This document shows positions 1,309 to 51,000 of a stretch of DNA of 64,000 nt, piece by piece. This stretch comes from a virus. Within the stretch, counting starts at the first letter, position 1, and each line of letters opens with the position of its first letter. The translations under genes were made by a program, and so were the position numbers. A model generated the notes under the pieces. The model saw only the letters and a list, made by a program, of their open reading frames with translations, was not told the origin of the DNA and searched no databases. The stretch lies in IMG/VR virus record IMGVR_UViG_3300042888_002550, positions 1 to 64,000 of that record; one strand, 5' to 3'.

Positions 1309-1926
1309 TTACGCACTACAACCATAACATTCAAATTGACTATCAGTAGGTTTCTCAGGTTTAATTTGTTTACCCATATCAATAGCTAAATGTTTACCTT
1401 TCATTTCTACCGGTTGACTTCTTAGGTAGTATTGACCAGTTTTTAAACCTAACTTCCAAGCTAATGTGTGTGAGGTAGTTAATTTACCAACCGTTGGTGT
1501 GGCGAAAAATATGTTAAGACTTTGAGATTGATCAATGAATGGAGCTCTTTCGGCCGACATTTCAATAAGAGATTTTTGTGATATCTCCCAAACAGTTTTA
1601 TATCTTTCCTTCATTTCTTGACTAATAACTGGGATTGATTGAACGCTACCATCATTTTTTATCAATTCATTAAGAATGTCCCTATTCCATAACCCTTCTA
1701 ATTCTAAATCTTTAACCAAATGTTTATTAACCATAGCGAATTCACCACCAGTTACCTTACGAACATATAAATTAGAAGTAAACGGTTCAAAAGCTTCATT
1801 AGAACCTATGACACGGGCCGAATTATGACTAACACAACCATTTTCCATTATATAATGATGAACATTTGGTACTTCAATATCCCAAGTTGGTTTAACTCCG
1901 TTTTTAATTATACTTTTTATTTTCAT
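1309..1926 (-). CDS. nrdA: NrdA fragment 3: IntC2 plus C-terminal extein of class Ia ribonucleotide reductase
   Basis: The first 35 residues (from MKIKSIIKNG) are the C-terminal half of a split intein: a block F-like stretch PNVHHYIMENG and a block G ending VSHN, followed by the +1 serine. The remaining 170 residues are the C-terminus of the NrdA large subunit, resuming at SARVIGSNEAFEPFTSN. It keeps the tyrosine pair in TGQYYLRSQ (radical-transfer tyrosines, E. coli Tyr730/731) and a C-terminal CYGC redox pair. The ATG at 1926 is chosen because it follows an A-rich leader and gives a typical IntC length. An alternative ATG at 1968 would add 14 residues and overlap the preceding fragment by 11 bases. 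The protein can only act after trans-splicing to fragment 2. Confidence 0.9.
   Translation of the reverse strand: MKIKSIIKNGVKPTWDIEVPNVHHYIMENGCVSHNSARVIGSNEAFEPFTSNLYVRKVTGGEFAMVNKHLVKDLELEGLWNRDILNELIKNDGSVQSIPVISQEMKERYKTVWEISQKSLIEMSAERAPFIDQSQSLNIFFATPTVGKLTTSHTLAWKLGLKTGQYYLRSQPVEMKGKHLAIDMGKQIKPEKPTDSQFECYGCSA
1822..1926 (-). other. Split intein 2, C-terminal half (IntC2)
   Basis: 35 codons ending in the splice-site pair His-Asn with Ser as the first extein residue. Its partner IntN2 ends the ORF immediately upstream. Confidence 0.9.
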
Positions 1927-1957
1927 TTTATTTTTTGTTTTTATTAGATTACTTATT

Positions 1958-2944
1958 TTATTTTTCAAAAATATTTATAATATCGTCCGTAGTTAATAAA
2001 TCCTCAACTTTAACCCAAATTTCAGTATCACCTCTTTTAATCCTAAATTTATGGTTAGGTGTTGCTTCAAATATAGAACCATCTTCCATTTCAATTTTAT
2101 AAACTTCAGAATGACCATTATATTTTATTTGACTTACATCTTCATACCCATTATAAGTTTTTACTTTTATAGGTGTTTTAAATTCAACCCATTGTTGTTC
2201 ATTAGATTCTTCTAATTTAACATAATCAACACCATTTTCAACTAGTAAATCTTTAAATGATTTAACACCATTTTCAGTATGTATTCTAGTATCAATAACT
2301 TGACAACTTGCGGTTGGCGGACAGGTCGTGACAAGTGAGTTTCTAACACCATATTTTTTAATATCTTTTCTTAATTGTTTCCAATCAAACATACCACTCA
2401 ATTCAGATTCATCAACACCCCACATTTCCCATTGGAAAATACCTTTTGAAATTGGAGATCCTTCATAAAAATCATAAGTTAATCCAGTTTCTTTCGCTAA
2501 ATCACAAGATTGTCTTAAAGCGTTATAATAAATTGTTTCAAATATTTTTTTATTTAATGATCTAGCTTCTTCAGATACAAATGGTAATCGTAACATAGCG
2601 AAAGTGTCAGCTAATCCTTGGATACCAATACCTAAAGCTCTTTGTTCTAAACCACCTTTTCTACCTTCTTTAGTTGAATATTCATTAACATCTATCGCAA
2701 TATTAAGTGATTTTGTTATTGATCGTGTAACACGACCTAATTCATTAAAATCATACTCATTATCTATGACAAATTTTTGAACCGGTATTGACGTTAGCGT
2801 ACAGATGGCGGTGGTTTCTTTATCAGTTACCTCCATAATTTCGGAATTATGTACTAATATATTATTAGCAAAGAAATTACTAGTTTCTTCTACTTGTATA
2901 TCATATACATCAATTTTTTCTTCTAATTTTTTTATTTTTATCAT
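1958..2944 (-). CDS. nrdA: NrdA fragment 2: IntC1, middle extein and IntN2
   Basis: A 328-residue ORF with inteins at both ends. Residues 1-33 are an IntC (ETSNFFANNILVHN). Residues 34-213 are NrdA, starting SEIMEVTDKETTAICTL, where E35 matches the catalytic glutamate (E. coli Glu441) and C48 the active-site disulfide cysteine (Cys462). The extein ends at TTCPPTAS. Residues 214-328 are an IntN starting CQVIDTRIHTENG, with block B ATPNHKF. The ORF starts two bases after the stop of fragment 1, so the pieces form one operon without an intervening gene. This fragment has neither the radical cysteine nor the radical-transfer tyrosines and must be spliced on both sides. I see no homing endonuclease domain. 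Confidence 0.92.
   Translation of the reverse strand: MIKIKKLEEKIDVYDIQVEETSNFFANNILVHNSEIMEVTDKETTAICTLTSIPVQKFVIDNEYDFNELGRVTRSITKSLNIAIDVNEYSTKEGRKGGLEQRALGIGIQGLADTFAMLRLPFVSEEARSLNKKIFETIYYNALRQSCDLAKETGLTYDFYEGSPISKGIFQWEMWGVDESELSGMFDWKQLRKDIKKYGVRNSLVTTCPPTASCQVIDTRIHTENGVKSFKDLLVENGVDYVKLEESNEQQWVEFKTPIKVKTYNGYEDVSQIKYNGHSEVYKIEMEDGSIFEATPNHKFRIKRGDTEIWVKVEDLLTTDDIINIFEK
1961..2305 (-). other. Split intein 2, N-terminal half (IntN2)
   Basis: 115 codons. The first residue is Cys (nucleophile) after the extein sequence PPTAS, and block B reads ATPNHKF. The C-extein resumes with SARVIG, so the insertion lies inside the conserved PTAS-x-x-(I/V) loop of NrdA. Confidence 0.9.
2846..2944 (-). 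other. Split intein 1, C-terminal half (IntC1)
   Basis: 33 codons forming the start of NrdA fragment 2, ending NNILVHN, with Ser as the +1 residue. Its sequence is clearly different from IntC2. Confidence 0.9.
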
Positions 2945-2945
2945 C

Positions 2946-4511
2946 TTATTTATTAATAATTAATTCATCATTTTCATTTAATTCACCGGCCATAACATAC
3001 CCTCTGTTTTTTGTTAATATTTGGTGATCTGGTGTACAAACTATTTTTACCCCTAACTCATCATCACTAACTTCTATAATTTCAGCGTTTGATTTCATTT
3101 TCGCAGCAGCCAACATTGGTCTAAAAATATTATCTTGACTTAAAACTTTTATATTTTTATCCTTTTTAATTTCTTCAACAACATTTTTCATAGTTACTTC
3201 TCTAATCTCACCATTACCATACATAATCGTAATTAATGTGTCACTATGTAAACAACATAGGTTACTTGAATGTATAACACCAAAATTCTTTTGATTTGAT
3301 TTATTATTCGCATGATCTTTAAAACACATATAAGGCATACCACTTTCAATTTGTGATTCAATAATTCTTAACCACAAATCGTGAGCTTTGATTTTAGTAC
3401 CTAAACCCATCTCAACAGCCTTATTATATTCTAACTCATATTCTTCACCATAGATATCATAAAATGGTTTTAAACCAGCTTGTTTAATGTCATTAGGACA
3501 AAACAAATACCAATCCCCATTTGATTCAACAGCTCTCATAAAGTTATCCGGTATCCATAACGCTGAAAATAAATCTCGTGCTCTAAGTGTTTCATCACCA
3601 GTTTTCTTTCTAATATCCAAAATATCAAATACATCTTTATGCCAAGGTTCAATATAAACAGCGCAAGATCCAGGTCGTTTACCTCTTTGATTCCAAAATC
3701 TTAAAGCTTCATTTACAACTTTTAAATATTTTAAAATACCACCAGCTTTACCATTTGATTGTCCAACATTACTTTCCTTTGAACGAATGTTAGATATAGC
3801 TAAACCAATACCTTCAGCTTTAGATGATGATACTGATATTCTATTTAACATACTTAATAACCCCTCAGTTGAGTCATCCGGAACTATAGATAAATTACAT
3901 GACGCAATTTGTCCTATATTAGTACCAATATTAATTTTTATAGGCGTAGCTGGAGATTCCCTTTGTAAACTTAAATCTTCATACTTTTCTTTAAAATCAG
4001 TAGGGTTATTAGTCACCATTAAAGCTACTCTAATGTATAGGTGTTGTGGTCTTTCTGTTATTTCATCACCAATTTTTAATAAGTAGATATCTTTAAGTGA
4101 ACACCATCCAAAATAATCAAATCTATAATCTCTTTTATAATCAATTACTGATTCAATCAGATCAATATTTTCTTTTACTTTATTATAATAGAAATCATTT
4201 AATAAACCAGCGTTATATAATCTTTTAGTAGCCTTCATAAAAGAATCTTCAGTTTCTTTATGTAATTTACTAATTGATATGTTAGCGGCCAACTTAGAAT
4301 AGTCTGGATGATTCATAGCTAATGATTCTGACACAACTGAAATTAAATCATCAACTTCATCGGTTGTCATATTATCAGCAATACCTTGAGTAACTTTAAG
4401 AAATACTTCATCAGCATTTATTTTTAACCCTTCCGCTTGTTTTTTTATTCTAGTTAAAATTTTATTTGGGTTGAAATCAATCTTAGACCCATTTCTTTTT
4501 ATTACTCGCAT
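2946..4511 (-). CDS. nrdA: NrdA fragment 1: N-terminal extein plus IntN1 of class Ia ribonucleotide reductase
   Basis: A 521-residue ORF. Residues 1-419 are the N-terminal part of the aerobic class Ia large subunit, which reduces ribonucleoside diphosphates. An ATP-cone-like start (MRVIKRNGSKIDFNPNKI) is followed by the barrel, with C205 in IASCNLSIVPDD (E. coli Cys225) and the finger-loop N-L-C motif ending at C419 (E. coli radical Cys439). Residue 420 is the first cysteine of an intein N-half (CLHSDTLITI, block B CTPDHQI), which fills the remaining 102 residues. Joined exteins 419+180+170 give about 769 residues, matching NrdA (754-761 in T4 and E. coli). It lies between nrdB upstream and fragment 2 downstream on the same strand. 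Confidence 0.93.
   Translation of the reverse strand: MRVIKRNGSKIDFNPNKILTRIKKQAEGLKINADEVFLKVTQGIADNMTTDEVDDLISVVSESLAMNHPDYSKLAANISISKLHKETEDSFMKATKRLYNAGLLNDFYYNKVKENIDLIESVIDYKRDYRFDYFGWCSLKDIYLLKIGDEITERPQHLYIRVALMVTNNPTDFKEKYEDLSLQRESPATPIKINIGTNIGQIASCNLSIVPDDSTEGLLSMLNRISVSSSKAEGIGLAISNIRSKESNVGQSNGKAGGILKYLKVVNEALRFWNQRGKRPGSCAVYIEPWHKDVFDILDIRKKTGDETLRARDLFSALWIPDNFMRAVESNGDWYLFCPNDIKQAGLKPFYDIYGEEYELEYNKAVEMGLGTKIKAHDLWLRIIESQIESGMPYMCFKDHANNKSNQKNFGVIHSSNLCCLHSDTLITIMYGNGEIREVTMKNVVEEIKKDKNIKVLSQDNIFRPMLAAAKMKSNAEIIEVSDDELGVKIVCTPDHQILTKNRGYVMAGELNENDELIINK
2949..3254 (-). other. Split intein 1, N-terminal half (IntN1)
   Basis: 102 codons starting at the second cysteine of SNLCC and ending two residues after ELIINK begins; block A is CLHSDTLITI and block B CTPDHQI. 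The first cysteine of the pair is the NrdA radical cysteine, so the splice site touches the catalytic residue. Confidence 0.9.
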
Positions 4512-4531: not shown

Positions 4532-5482
4532 TTAAATTTCTTCGTCAAATGATATTGGTCCTGATAAATCAGCGGCTTTATATTCTGTAGATCTCCCCTC
4601 AAAAAAGTTTTGTTTTGTTTTTAACGCAATTTGATTCATAAATTCAAATGGATTTTTTGTGTTAAATACTTTTTCACAATTGAGTGTTGATAGTAAACCA
4701 TCAACAACAAACTCCAAATATTGTTTCATTAAATCAGCGTTCATACCAATAAGTGATACTGGTAATGATTCTAATATAAATTCTTTTTCAATATCTAACG
4801 CAGATAATAATATCTCCTTTATTTTTTCTTTAGATGGTTTATTAACAATATGATTGTTTAATAAATGTATCGCGAAATCACAATGTAAGGCTTCATCTCT
4901 TGATATGAAAGCGTTACTATCACATAACCCCGGCATTAATCCTCTAGACTTTAAATAGAATATACTACAAAAAGAACCACTAAAAAATATACCTTCTACC
5001 GCCACAAAAGCTAATAGTCTTTCAACAAATGATTCTGATTCAATCCATTTCAAAGCCCAATCAGCCTTCTTCTTAACCGGTGGCATGTACTCAATAGCCT
5101 TAAAACATTTATGTCTTTCTTTAATATCCTTTATATAAGTGTCAATCAATAAAGAATACACATGACTATGTATATTCTCCATCATAATTTGAAACCCATA
5201 AAAAAACTTAGCTTCAGTATATTGTACTTCATTTAAAAAATTGATAGCTAAATTTTCATTTACAATACCATCAGACGCGGCGAAAAAAGCCAATACATTT
5301 TTAATGAAAAATCTTTCATTATCAGTTAATTTGTTTTCCCAATGATCAATATCTTTTGATAAATCTAATTCTTCAGCTGTCCACATCGCAGCTTTTTCAA
5401 TATTGTAGTATTCCCACAAATCTTGATGTTCAATTGGGAATAATACAAACCTATCAGGATTTGTTACTAGTATTGGTTCCAT
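4532..5482 (-). CDS. nrdB: Ribonucleotide reductase class Ia small subunit NrdB
   Basis: A 316-residue R2 protein that carries the diiron-tyrosyl radical cofactor used by NrdA. The visible ligand set is complete: D40 in EELDLSKD, E102 and H105 in [10 protein letters not shown]163 in VEGIFF, and E197 and H200 in RDEALH. The radical tyrosine is Y109, four residues after H105. The sequence [10 protein letters not shown] and the spacing resemble eukaryotic/viral-type R2 more than E. coli NrdB. Unlike nrdA it is intact with no intein. It lies 20 bases upstream of nrdA fragment 1, after the helicase gene, in a tightly packed unit. Confidence 0.95.
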
Positions 5483-48046: not shown

Positions 48047-51000
48047 CTAAAAGTATTCTGTATCAGTTGGTTCATTAATAATTTCAGTAGGTTCAATTTC
48101 CGTGATATACATATATTCCGGATTAGCACCAACCTTTTCCCAAAAGTCAATTTCTTTTTGTTCCATAACAAAAACATCATCTAATGTATCCTGATCAATA
48201 GGATCTGTTGGGAAACCAGAACATAGTTCAAGTTGTTTCTTGGTAAAATATTGTCTTTTTGATGGATTATCAATTAAAATATCACTTCTAATTTCCGGAC
48301 TAAAACAAACAATTAATGGTTCAATCCTAGTGTTAAAAGCCACTAAATATTTAGTGACATTATACTCACCCTTTAAATCTGGATTATTCTCAATTTGATT
48401 AGTTAAGATTAACGATGAATTAAATTCAATGTCAGTAGTACCATCTTTATTCTTTTTAGCTTTAACATCAGCGTGAGATTTTTTAGTACCGGTATTAATA
48501 TAATATATTGTGTCACCAAGGTTAACATTAATATTTTCTTTTAATAAAAGTTCCATATGAGCCTGACGTGGCATAGGATTACCGGCTTTATTCTTCCTTT
48601 TAGTATTTTCTTTATAACTTTCTAATGTTTGTTTTACTTTCCCTTTACTAGCGATTTTAAGTAATGGGATTTCTTGGTTATAAATCATTTCAACATTCTC
48701 ATAATAAAGTTCAATGAATTCATTACCATTACCTTCTAATAACATTCTAATCGCTTTATCTAAAAAATCTTCAATGTACTTTGGCATCTTAGCCGATTTA
48801 ATTGTATTACCAACTAACTTAACTTCACCATCAATTAAATCCGCATAATTTTTTCTTGATAAATTAATAGTTGATTCAATTACCTCATCAATACCTAACT
48901 TCATAAAACCTCTCATATACTTTTCATTGAACTCAGCTAAAGCCGCTTCAATACCATTATATATTTTATCTTTAACAACTGTTAAGTGAGTACCTAAACC
49001 AGTGTATGTTAATTCTTTAGCGTTTTCTGGTATCTTAAAGTTGAAACCATCGGTATTATGGGCGATTATTTTACCCTTACCGATAATAAATGTCCCATCT
49101 TCTGTTGAAACATCATAGACAAAATTATTTGGACATGGGTTGTCAATATCAGATATATTAGTGATTAAACCTTGACTGACATCCCCATTTTCATAAACAT
49201 CAATATATTCACCAATTTTTAATGATGAAGGTTTTATTTCAACCCCATTTTGAAAAAGTGAATGGTCTTCCGTCACATCAACATTACCCCTATCTTTTAT
49301 TGAAATTGATTTAATTTGTTTTTCTGTACCATGTCTATAAACATACTTAATATCTTTCCAACCACTTCTAGTTAATATCTTATATGGTTTATCTGAGTAA
49401 TCTCTTAATTGATCACCTTCAATAGTACCAGTTATATCAAATAAATCTGAAATTGGTAAAATGTCTAATATATCATCACCATATTTAATATAAACAGGTG
49501 TGTCATACGTCACACTATCACCTACTATTGGTTCAAACCCCTTATCCATAAAGAATTTAATCATCAATCGTAGATATTGTCTACCAGTACAAGTGATCAT
49601 CGCACCAATGTTAGTATCACCCCAAGGAAATACATCTGGGGCTGATAATGAACCAAAGTTAGAGTTATTAAGAATTTTAATTGGTAATTGTTTCTTATCA
49701 AACATATCAGCCCCTTTATCGTCCCCTTCTCTTTGAGCTTTTTTCATTAGATTCTTATATAAATCTCGTTCCGCGAATAAATAAGTTAACATACCTTTTA
49801 ACGCACCGGTAATATCAACTTCTGGGAATACATCGTGAGTTAATTGTATTGAAGGGTAAAGTGATCCATAATCTAATTTAACTACATTTGGTACGAAACC
49901 AATTCTTAATAAACGAGATAATCCACCAGGAAATTTTTCTTTAGGTTGATAATCAGGTATAGCTAAACCATTCTCATATGACCAAGTACACATCAATACT
50001 TTCCATAAGGCCGCTGTACCCATTGTAGAGGTTCTTTGTAATGTTGATGGAACTAATTTAGACAATAAAAATGTCGCTTGATTATATTTGTAGTCAACTT
50101 GTTCTGTTTCCCATAAATCATCTATTAGATATTTCTTAATTATAAATTTACCATCCACTTCTTCCCATCCTTCATAACCAGTTTTATCTTCCGGAACTAC
50201 CATATACTTACCATCAGATTCGTTAAATAAGTAAGGACGTTCATCTACCCAAATTTTAGCGATCTTATCGTGACCAACATATACACGATTAGGTTTAGCG
50301 ATTTTAGAATATTTTGTAATATACTTCAAACCAGTTTCTTTGATGTTTGAATTAATGGCTTTAGCTCTTCTAACCGCGTGCCACACATCAATAACGTTAT
50401 AACCCCATAATACAGTTTGTTGATAATACTCCATCTCACCACCTAATTTTAAAGTAGCTTGTTTACGATAAAGTGGCATACCATTCTTAAGTGTCTTAGT
50501 AATTTTTTTATAATCTAAATTAAGTAATTCACAACGACCTAAAATATATGTCCAGTCAAAGTTCTCTGAATTATAACCACAAATAATATCTGGTTTTAAT
50601 TCATCAATAATATTAAAAAATGTATAAATCGCGTTTCGTTCTTCATCATCACTATCAATATCTAATACGTGTTCAAAACCACGATTATCTTTCATACCAA
50701 TTTGTAAAATTCTACCGGTTTCTGGTGTTAAAGATGTGGTTTCAATATCAAAAGAAAATCTAACTAAATCCGCGTAATCATCAAACCCTTTAAATAATCT
50801 TTTACCACTTTGTATTAAGAATTGCTCTGTAGGGCCAAGGGTTAAAAAACCCTTCCTATTTTCTTCCTTTTGAATATCAATACCGGATTCTTTAAAAAAG
50901 TTAGTAATATTTCTATAACTACCTCTGGTTTGAACTAAGAACTTAAAACCATTTTCTAAACGTTTGTGGATATTACCATTTTCATCCTCTAATTTAAGGG

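What the first reader, a model, noticed from the sequence alone, without database searches (positions are those of the whole stretch)
1309..4511. NrdA encoded as three ORFs joined by two split inteins
Three adjacent minus-strand ORFs carry intein halves in the order N-extein+IntN1, IntC1+middle extein+IntN2, IntC2+C-extein. The exteins add up to 769 residues, a full class Ia large subunit. Two trans-splicing reactions are needed in one protein. Split inteins in phage-type nrdA have been reported from marine metagenomes; a middle fragment with intein halves at both ends is, as far as I know, rarely described.
Basis: partly seen in the sequence, partly recalled or inferred. Interest (0 to 1): 0.92.

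Follow-up and report, generated by a model that had tools for sequence, protein, structure and literature searches.

The report
Three-piece phage enzyme, two split inteins
A bacteriophage encodes one essential enzyme, the large subunit of ribonucleotide reductase, as three separate proteins that carry matching halves of two self-splicing elements, so the pieces are probably stitched into one enzyme after translation; the same layout recurs in other phages.

Summary
Three adjacent minus-strand ORFs encode a 769-residue NrdA in three parts: E1-IntN1, IntC1-E2-IntN2 and IntC2-E3. All four intein halves pass the curated NCBIfam cut-offs. Cys1, TxxH, terminal HN and a +1 Ser are present at both sites. 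Intein-free relatives have the exteins joined exactly at both sites. Site 1 follows the thiyl-radical cysteine; site 2 lies in the PTAS|S loop.

A single-base indel could have produced either break, so I tested for error. Three other assemblies are identical in DNA. A relative (exteins 79-85% identical) has the same double split. Its near-twin carries a 386-aa GIY-YIG endonuclease gene between the site-1 halves. Five site-2-only loci carry an endonuclease-like gene there. The breaks are real, and the window looks like the endonuclease-free end state.

The layout recurs: 19 representatives with an uninterrupted middle piece fall into 17 clusters (90% middle-extein identity), including named phages KP13-7 and WX1. 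Most likely two independent trans-splicing reactions, using two divergent intein pairs, build an 87-kDa NrdA. Splicing itself is inferred, not shown. Split inteins and fractured genes are known; the doubly split gene is a new variant as far as I could search. The key 2009 paper was not readable.

The parts
2946..4511 (-). ORF1: NrdA N-extein (E1, 3255-4511, 419 aa) + IntN1 (2949-3254, 102 aa)
   Evidence: PF03477, PF00317 and PF02867 1-213; TIGR01445 30.0 bits
1958..2944 (-). ORF2: IntC1 (2846-2944, 33 aa) + middle extein E2 (2306-2845, 180 aa) + IntN2 (1961-2305, 115 aa)
   Evidence: PF02867 213-396; TIGR01443 31.1 and TIGR01445 36.4 bits
1309..1926 (-). ORF3: IntC2 (1822-1926, 35 aa) + C-extein E3 (1312-1821, 170 aa); an upstream TTG at 1968 is less likely the start
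   Evidence: PF02867 393-523; TIGR01443 26.1 bits
2945..2948 (-). break 1: stop codon of ORF1 (2946-2948) then one base before the ATG of ORF2; no room for an endonuclease gene
   Evidence: 4-nt gap
1927..1960 (-). break 2: 34-nt gap that begins with the stop codon of ORF2 (1958-1960) and ends before the ATG of ORF3
4532..5482 (-). nrdB, small subunit, directly upstream on the same strand
   Evidence: PF00268 343 bits
1253..1277 (-). terminator-like hairpin with T run just after ORF3; weak evidence (3 such sites found in the region, 1.6 expected)

Best explanation
The phage makes NrdA as three polypeptides. IntN1 (ORF1) pairs with IntC1 (ORF2), and IntN2 (ORF2) pairs with IntC2 (ORF3). Each pair folds into a splicing domain, cuts itself out and joins its exteins: ...SSNLC|SEIM... 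at the active-site cysteine and ...PPTAS|SARV... in the phosphate-binding loop. The product is one 769-residue, 87-kDa class Ia NrdA. No single piece carries all the redox residues, so activity should depend on both reactions. The layout arose when mobile split inteins with a free-standing endonuclease gene between their halves invaded two sites; the endonuclease genes were later lost and the splits remained. Shown: anatomy, motifs, empty sites, recurrence, stages with and without endonuclease. Inferred: the splicing reactions, pair specificity and history.
For: All four halves exceed curated cut-offs. Motifs: C1/TPDH/HN|S and C1/TPNH/HN|S. Extein segments align end to end with human and yeast R1. 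IntN1 is closest to the split intein NrdJ-1 (8ubs, E 6e-17). Both empty-site motifs in 43 of 46 relatives. Both breaks are replicated. dN/dS (Nei-Gojobori, own script) of the window against four relatives is 0.06-0.23 for the exteins, 0.24-0.31 for IntN2 and 0.07-0.24 for IntC2. Site-2 stages: endonuclease-like gene of 353-359 aa (L008, L015), 90-aa remnant (L094), none (window, L012). Site-1 stages: L011 with a 386-aa GIY-YIG gene, L012 without. Mobility: L150 has the whole site-2 element (818 nt) and L148 lacks it, with 91-100% DNA identity upstream and 92-98% downstream of it. IntN1 plus the 5' end of the endonuclease gene is 98-100% identical in DNA between L011 and L150 while the flanks are near 80%.
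Against: No protein or splicing data. IntC1 is net negative (-2) like IntN1 (-4); well-studied split inteins tend to pair oppositely charged halves (recalled). Ribosome binding sites were not checked. Pfam PF14890 is below its cut-off for ORF1 (21.9 against 35.8) and does not hit ORF3; only ORF2 passes (47.2). The AlphaFold2 model of ORF2 is poor (pLDDT 60.7) and decides nothing. IntN1 against L012/L150 has dN/dS 0.68-0.72 at 38% identity; this compares different alleles and gives no evidence of constraint. TIGR02506's full-length cut-off is not reached by any piece alone.
Confidence: 0.88

Rival explanations
1. Sequencing, assembly or frameshift error: the gene has two ordinary contiguous mini-inteins, and two single-base indels in A/T runs broke the frame.
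For: In both places the downstream frame is open past the upstream stop, so one indel each could fuse the ORFs. Contiguous inteins at site 1 or site 2 exist in other phages.
Against: Identical DNA in three further assemblies, which may be the same population. The same double split in L011-L014 with different spacers. Endonuclease genes in the gaps of relatives. The IntN2 stop is within one residue of the same alignment position in L007, L008, L012 and L015.
Confidence: 0.03
2. Genes in pieces without splicing: the three polypeptides associate non-covalently into an active enzyme, as reported for Aeromonas phage Aeh1 NrdA.
For: A two-piece NrdA without splicing is reported to stay active (passage in PMC7344957, citing others).
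Against: Both breaks lie in the active-site pocket, and the pieces keep matching intein halves with all catalytic motifs and low dN/dS for IntN2/IntC2.
Confidence: 0.05
3. Decaying nrdA: the gene is being lost and the pieces are not joined.
For: One paper suggested degeneration for intein-bearing Campylobacter phage nrdA (PMC3653736, passage). CP21 has a frameshifted endonuclease-like ORF and a frameshift in E3.
Against: Extein dN/dS 0.06-0.23, intact nrdB next to it, catalytic cysteine and YY motifs present.
Confidence: 0.03
4. Trans-splicing occurs, but the two intein pairs cross-react, giving E1-E3 skipping or a cyclised middle extein as regulated or wasteful by-products. This is compatible with the main explanation.
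For: ORF2 has the IntC-extein-IntN order that cyclises proteins if its own ends pair. Both inteins belong to one superfamily.
Against: IntN1/IntN2 25% and IntC1/IntC2 31% identical.
Confidence: 0.1

Closest known systems
Fractured genes with split inteins (Dassa et al. 2009; recalled, not readable here; cited in a passage)
   Same: Phage metabolic gene cut by a split intein, with a free-standing endonuclease gene between the halves, as in relatives of the window
   Different: The window has two such cuts in one gene and no endonuclease at either; I could not check whether that paper shows a double cut
NrdJ-1 split intein (PDB 8ubs)
   Same: Closest solved relative of IntN1 (E 6e-17)
   Different: Different host protein; one intein. 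IntN2 has only weak solved intein matches (best 4kl6, E 0.002)
Pseudomonas phage MIJ3 PolB split intein with HNH gene (PMC6892783, passages)
   Same: Natural phage split intein with an endonuclease ORF between the halves
   Different: One split, two pieces, other gene
Campylobacter phages CP20, CC_R7, IBB_35, CP220, CP21, WX1 nrdA
   Same: Same two nrdA sites; WX1 is also three-piece
   Different: In CP20, CC_R7 and IBB_35 site 2 is contiguous; CP220 and CP21 have site 1 empty; WX1 has ORFs in both gaps
Klebsiella phage KP13-7 nrdA (OP617745.1)
   Same: Both inteins split, not annotated as such
   Different: GIY-YIG gene at site 1, unidentified ORF at site 2, and a further interruption in E1
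Engineered tandem protein trans-splicing (PMC7210297, PMC12707363, passages)
   Same: Three segments joined by two orthogonal split inteins
   Different: Engineered, whereas this is natural

Membership tests
Split intein (each of the two) | N- and C-splicing regions over curated cut-offs | tested here: met
   TIGR01445 30.0/36.4 vs 24.5; TIGR01443 31.1/26.1 vs 15.6. Pfam PF14890 passes only for ORF2
Split intein (each of the two) | Cys1, block B TxxH, C-terminal HN and +1 nucleophile | tested here: met
Split intein (each of the two) | halves on separate ORFs at the canonical position (about 100 + 35-40 aa) | tested here: met
   102+33 and 115+35 aa; separate frames with stops; typical sizes from a passage
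Split intein (each of the two) | trans-splicing activity | not testable with these tools
   needs expression
Class Ia RNR large subunit NrdA | ATP cone, all-alpha and barrel domains, complete across the pieces | tested here: met
   PF03477, PF00317, PF02867 positions 1-523 in three tiles
Class Ia RNR large subunit NrdA | TIGR02506 full-length cut-off (341 bits) | tested here: inconclusive
   each piece alone is below it (254, 174, 139); joined protein not scanned
Class Ia RNR large subunit NrdA | redox and radical residues | tested here: met
   motifs IASC, SSNLC, AICTL, QYYLRS, CYGC present; the first four lie in stretches aligned to human or yeast R1; residue roles recalled
Fractured gene (split intein + free-standing endonuclease) | endonuclease gene between the intein halves | tested here: not met
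   gaps of 4 and 34 nt in the window; met in relatives such as L011 and KP13-7
Aeh1-type genes-in-pieces NrdA | pieces without splicing, joined non-covalently | tested here: inconclusive
   intein halves are present at both breaks, unlike the case described in the passage, but the absence of splicing cannot be tested here

The most novel reading that the evidence does not exclude
A natural counterpart of tandem protein trans-splicing: two mutually orthogonal split inteins, with no endonuclease left, are stably kept to build an essential enzyme from three gene products, with both joints inside the active site. Doubly split nrdA has arisen or spread repeatedly in phages, leaves a lasting three-gene scar when endonucleases are lost, and escapes single-ORF annotation of RNR.
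Probability: 0.7. Interest if true: 0.75.

Novelty: new variant of a known kind. Interest (0 to 1): 0.62.

Why it matters
It supplies natural, possibly orthogonal split-intein pairs that work in one protein, which engineers have had to combine by hand. It offers a staged natural series (empty, split with endonuclease, remnant, none; and contiguous against split among close phages) for asking how split inteins arise and persist. RNR surveys that require one protein to span the active site would miss such genes: one virioplankton study kept only sequences spanning its region of interest and reported eight with inteins (PMC12918982, passages); that such genes are missed there is my inference.

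Tried and rejected
Frameshift or assembly error: examined because both breaks lie in A/T runs; rejected as above. Programmed frameshifting: rejected because the frame between the halves is not conserved (gaps 34, 85, 86 nt at site 2) and whole ORFs can lie between them. Start at the first Cys of NLCC at site 1: rejected because the product would lose the active-site Cys. AlphaFold2 of ORF2 with 7 sequences: pLDDT 60.7, IntC1 under 40, not used, and no fold search made. Genome collection: 16 loci; 15 match only within query residues 1-64, none scored as two-site, not followed up. The promoter scan found fewer sites than shuffles (27 against 42.3), so it says nothing. The site-2 endonuclease-like ORF of L008 has no Pfam hit over a cut-off, only PHROG matches (phrog_9084 homing endonuclease, E 5.6e-7); my recollection that it resembles the VSR/EDxHD family is untested. 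Three representatives (L243, L245, L246) were dropped from the clean count because the middle extein is itself interrupted. In L101, L220 and L230 the start of one IntN lies outside the match, so its first residue was not checked. Eight of the 53 two-site sequences have one contiguous intein and were not counted as doubly split. Of the phage records hit only 11 regions were fetched; the others were not examined.
Full report
Anatomy. The window belongs to a 73.4-kb virus record. On the minus strand, nrdB (5482-4532) is followed by three ORFs. ORF1 holds the ATP cone, the all-alpha domain and the first part of the barrel; ORF2 and ORF3 hold the rest. PF02867 hits tile positions 1-213, 213-396 and 393-523. 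The intein halves are IntN1 102, IntC1 33, IntN2 115 and IntC2 35 residues. All four exceed the NCBIfam cut-offs; the Pfam splicing model PF14890 passes only for ORF2. The junctions are SSNLC|C...HN|SEIM and PPTAS|C...HN|SARV, with TPDH and TPNH in block B. Alignment to human R1 puts the first joint after the residue matching Cys429 and the second between 606 and 607 in the PTAS loop (match coordinates); the roles of these residues are recalled.

Are the breaks real? Each could come from one indel, because the downstream frame is open across the upstream stop. Against an error: contigs L004-L006 match the window exactly over 3.1-8.9 kb; they may be the same population. Independent evidence comes from L011-L014, whose exteins are 79-85% identical to the window's and which are also split twice with different spacers. 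L011 and L012 are near-twins (99-100% in the N-extein and IntN1 matches) but differ by a 386-aa GIY-YIG/NUMOD gene at site 1 and by one base in the site-2 spacer, with no effect on the ORFs. Five loci, L007-L010 and L015, have only the site-2 intein, also split, around an endonuclease-like ORF: 353-359 aa in the complete ones, cut by the contig end in L007. L008-L010 are identical there.

Empty sites and history. In L016-L061, 43 of 46 loci show both empty-site motifs; of the other three, two are truncated and L060 lacks the exact motif but its exteins abut. A tree of 36 distinct extein proteins (from 64 sequences) needs 3 changes for site-1 occupancy and 5 for site 2. Occupancy is scattered, though shuffled labels for the doubly occupied group need 3.9 changes on average against 3 observed (as low in 47 of 500), so the count itself is not unusual. 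L150 and L148 are near-identical, but only L150 has the site-2 element of 818 nt. Between L011 and L150 the DNA identity rises from about 80% to 98-100% over IntN1 and the start of the endonuclease gene and then falls back, which points to a recent transfer of that part. The window's IntN1 is a different allele, 38% identical to that of L012, and sits one codon further on, so site 1 was probably occupied separately in the two lineages.

Stages. Site 2: endonuclease-like gene of 353-359 aa (L008, L015), a 90-aa remnant in a 401-nt gap (L094), none (34 nt in the window, 86 nt in L012). Site 1: 386 aa (L011), 252-257 aa (L148, L150), none (4 nt in the window and L012). The window therefore fits the end of a path in which the endonuclease genes are lost and the gene stays in three pieces. 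The direction is inferred. In the Campylobacter phages the site-2 intein is contiguous in CP220, CP20, CC_R7 and IBB_35 but split around an ORF in CP21 and WX1, so both forms occur among close relatives.

How widespread? Among 291 sequences examined (290 fetched loci plus the window, with repeats of the same contig), 53 have inteins at both sites and 45 of these are split at both. I examined 22 representatives of those 45 by junction; the other 23 repeat contigs or sequences already represented (and the locus tables). Three (L243, L245, L246) have an interrupted middle extein and were dropped. The other 19 fall into 17 clusters at 90% and 14 at 70% E2 identity. They include two named phage records, Klebsiella phage KP13-7 and Campylobacter phage WX1. 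Nine of the 17 clusters have an ORF of at least 200 aa in both gaps. The window, L012-L014, L101, L179/L180, L220 and L233 have none of 100 aa in either gap, though the site-2 gaps of L101 and L220 are still 493 and 946 nt long. The loci were chosen by similarity to these pieces and the lists were capped at 80 per scan, so these numbers show recurrence, not frequency.

Mechanism. The most likely path is two cognate trans-splicing reactions. IntN1 and IntN2 are 25% identical and IntC1 and IntC2 31%, which favours specific pairing but does not prove it. If ORF2's own ends paired, the middle extein would be cyclised; if ORF1 paired with ORF3, the middle would be skipped. Purifying selection on IntN2 and IntC2 is suggested by dN/dS of 0.24-0.31 and 0.07-0.24 (window against four relatives), with the cautions that IntC2 is only 35 codons and that synonymous sites of the exteins are near saturation.

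Literature. Ten searches listed no paper that I could see describing a natural gene in three pieces joined by two split inteins. I saw search listings and selected passages only, never whole papers. Dassa et al. 2009, the founding paper on fractured genes (recalled), was not held and may contain such a case. The IBB_35 paper reports nrdA interrupted by two inteins (PMC3322345, passages); in its record three intein features are marked, one of which encloses a CDS.

None of these changes the odds.

Noticed in passing
window 49055-49516, minus strand, in ORF 51256-48047: A third intein: a contiguous 154-aa mini-intein with first residue Ser and no endonuclease, in what looks like a B-family DNA polymerase, at GD|S...HN|TDG (the polymerase assignment is by eye).
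   Followed up: partly
site 1 in window, KP13-7, CP20, L166 versus L012, L150, L157, TG1: The site-1 intein sits either just after or just before the active-site Cys codon, a one-codon shift of the insertion point; in the second case the catalytic Cys itself would be the +1 nucleophile.
   Followed up: partly
L011:4487-4860 against L150: A sharp tract of about 98-100% DNA identity covering IntN1 and the start of the endonuclease gene, with flanks near 80%, so IntN1 was exchanged without its IntC1, which is 79% identical between L012 and L150.
   Followed up: partly
L022:4144-5337 (and L023): Another contiguous intein-like insert of about 400 aa in the N-extein at IASC, next to another redox Cys, in a relative whose two other sites are empty.
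   Followed up: no
L193 (Campylobacter phage CP21): Site-2 intein split around an endonuclease-like ORF broken by a frameshift, and a frameshift in E3.
   Followed up: no
L084 (Klebsiella phage KP13-7) 2849-3508: A further interruption of E1 with a small ORF, possibly a group I intron; no RNA search was made.
   Followed up: no
L089 (Klebsiella phage phiKp_21): A relative of KP13-7 with site 1 empty and the same split site-2 intein around a 323-aa ORF.
   Followed up: no
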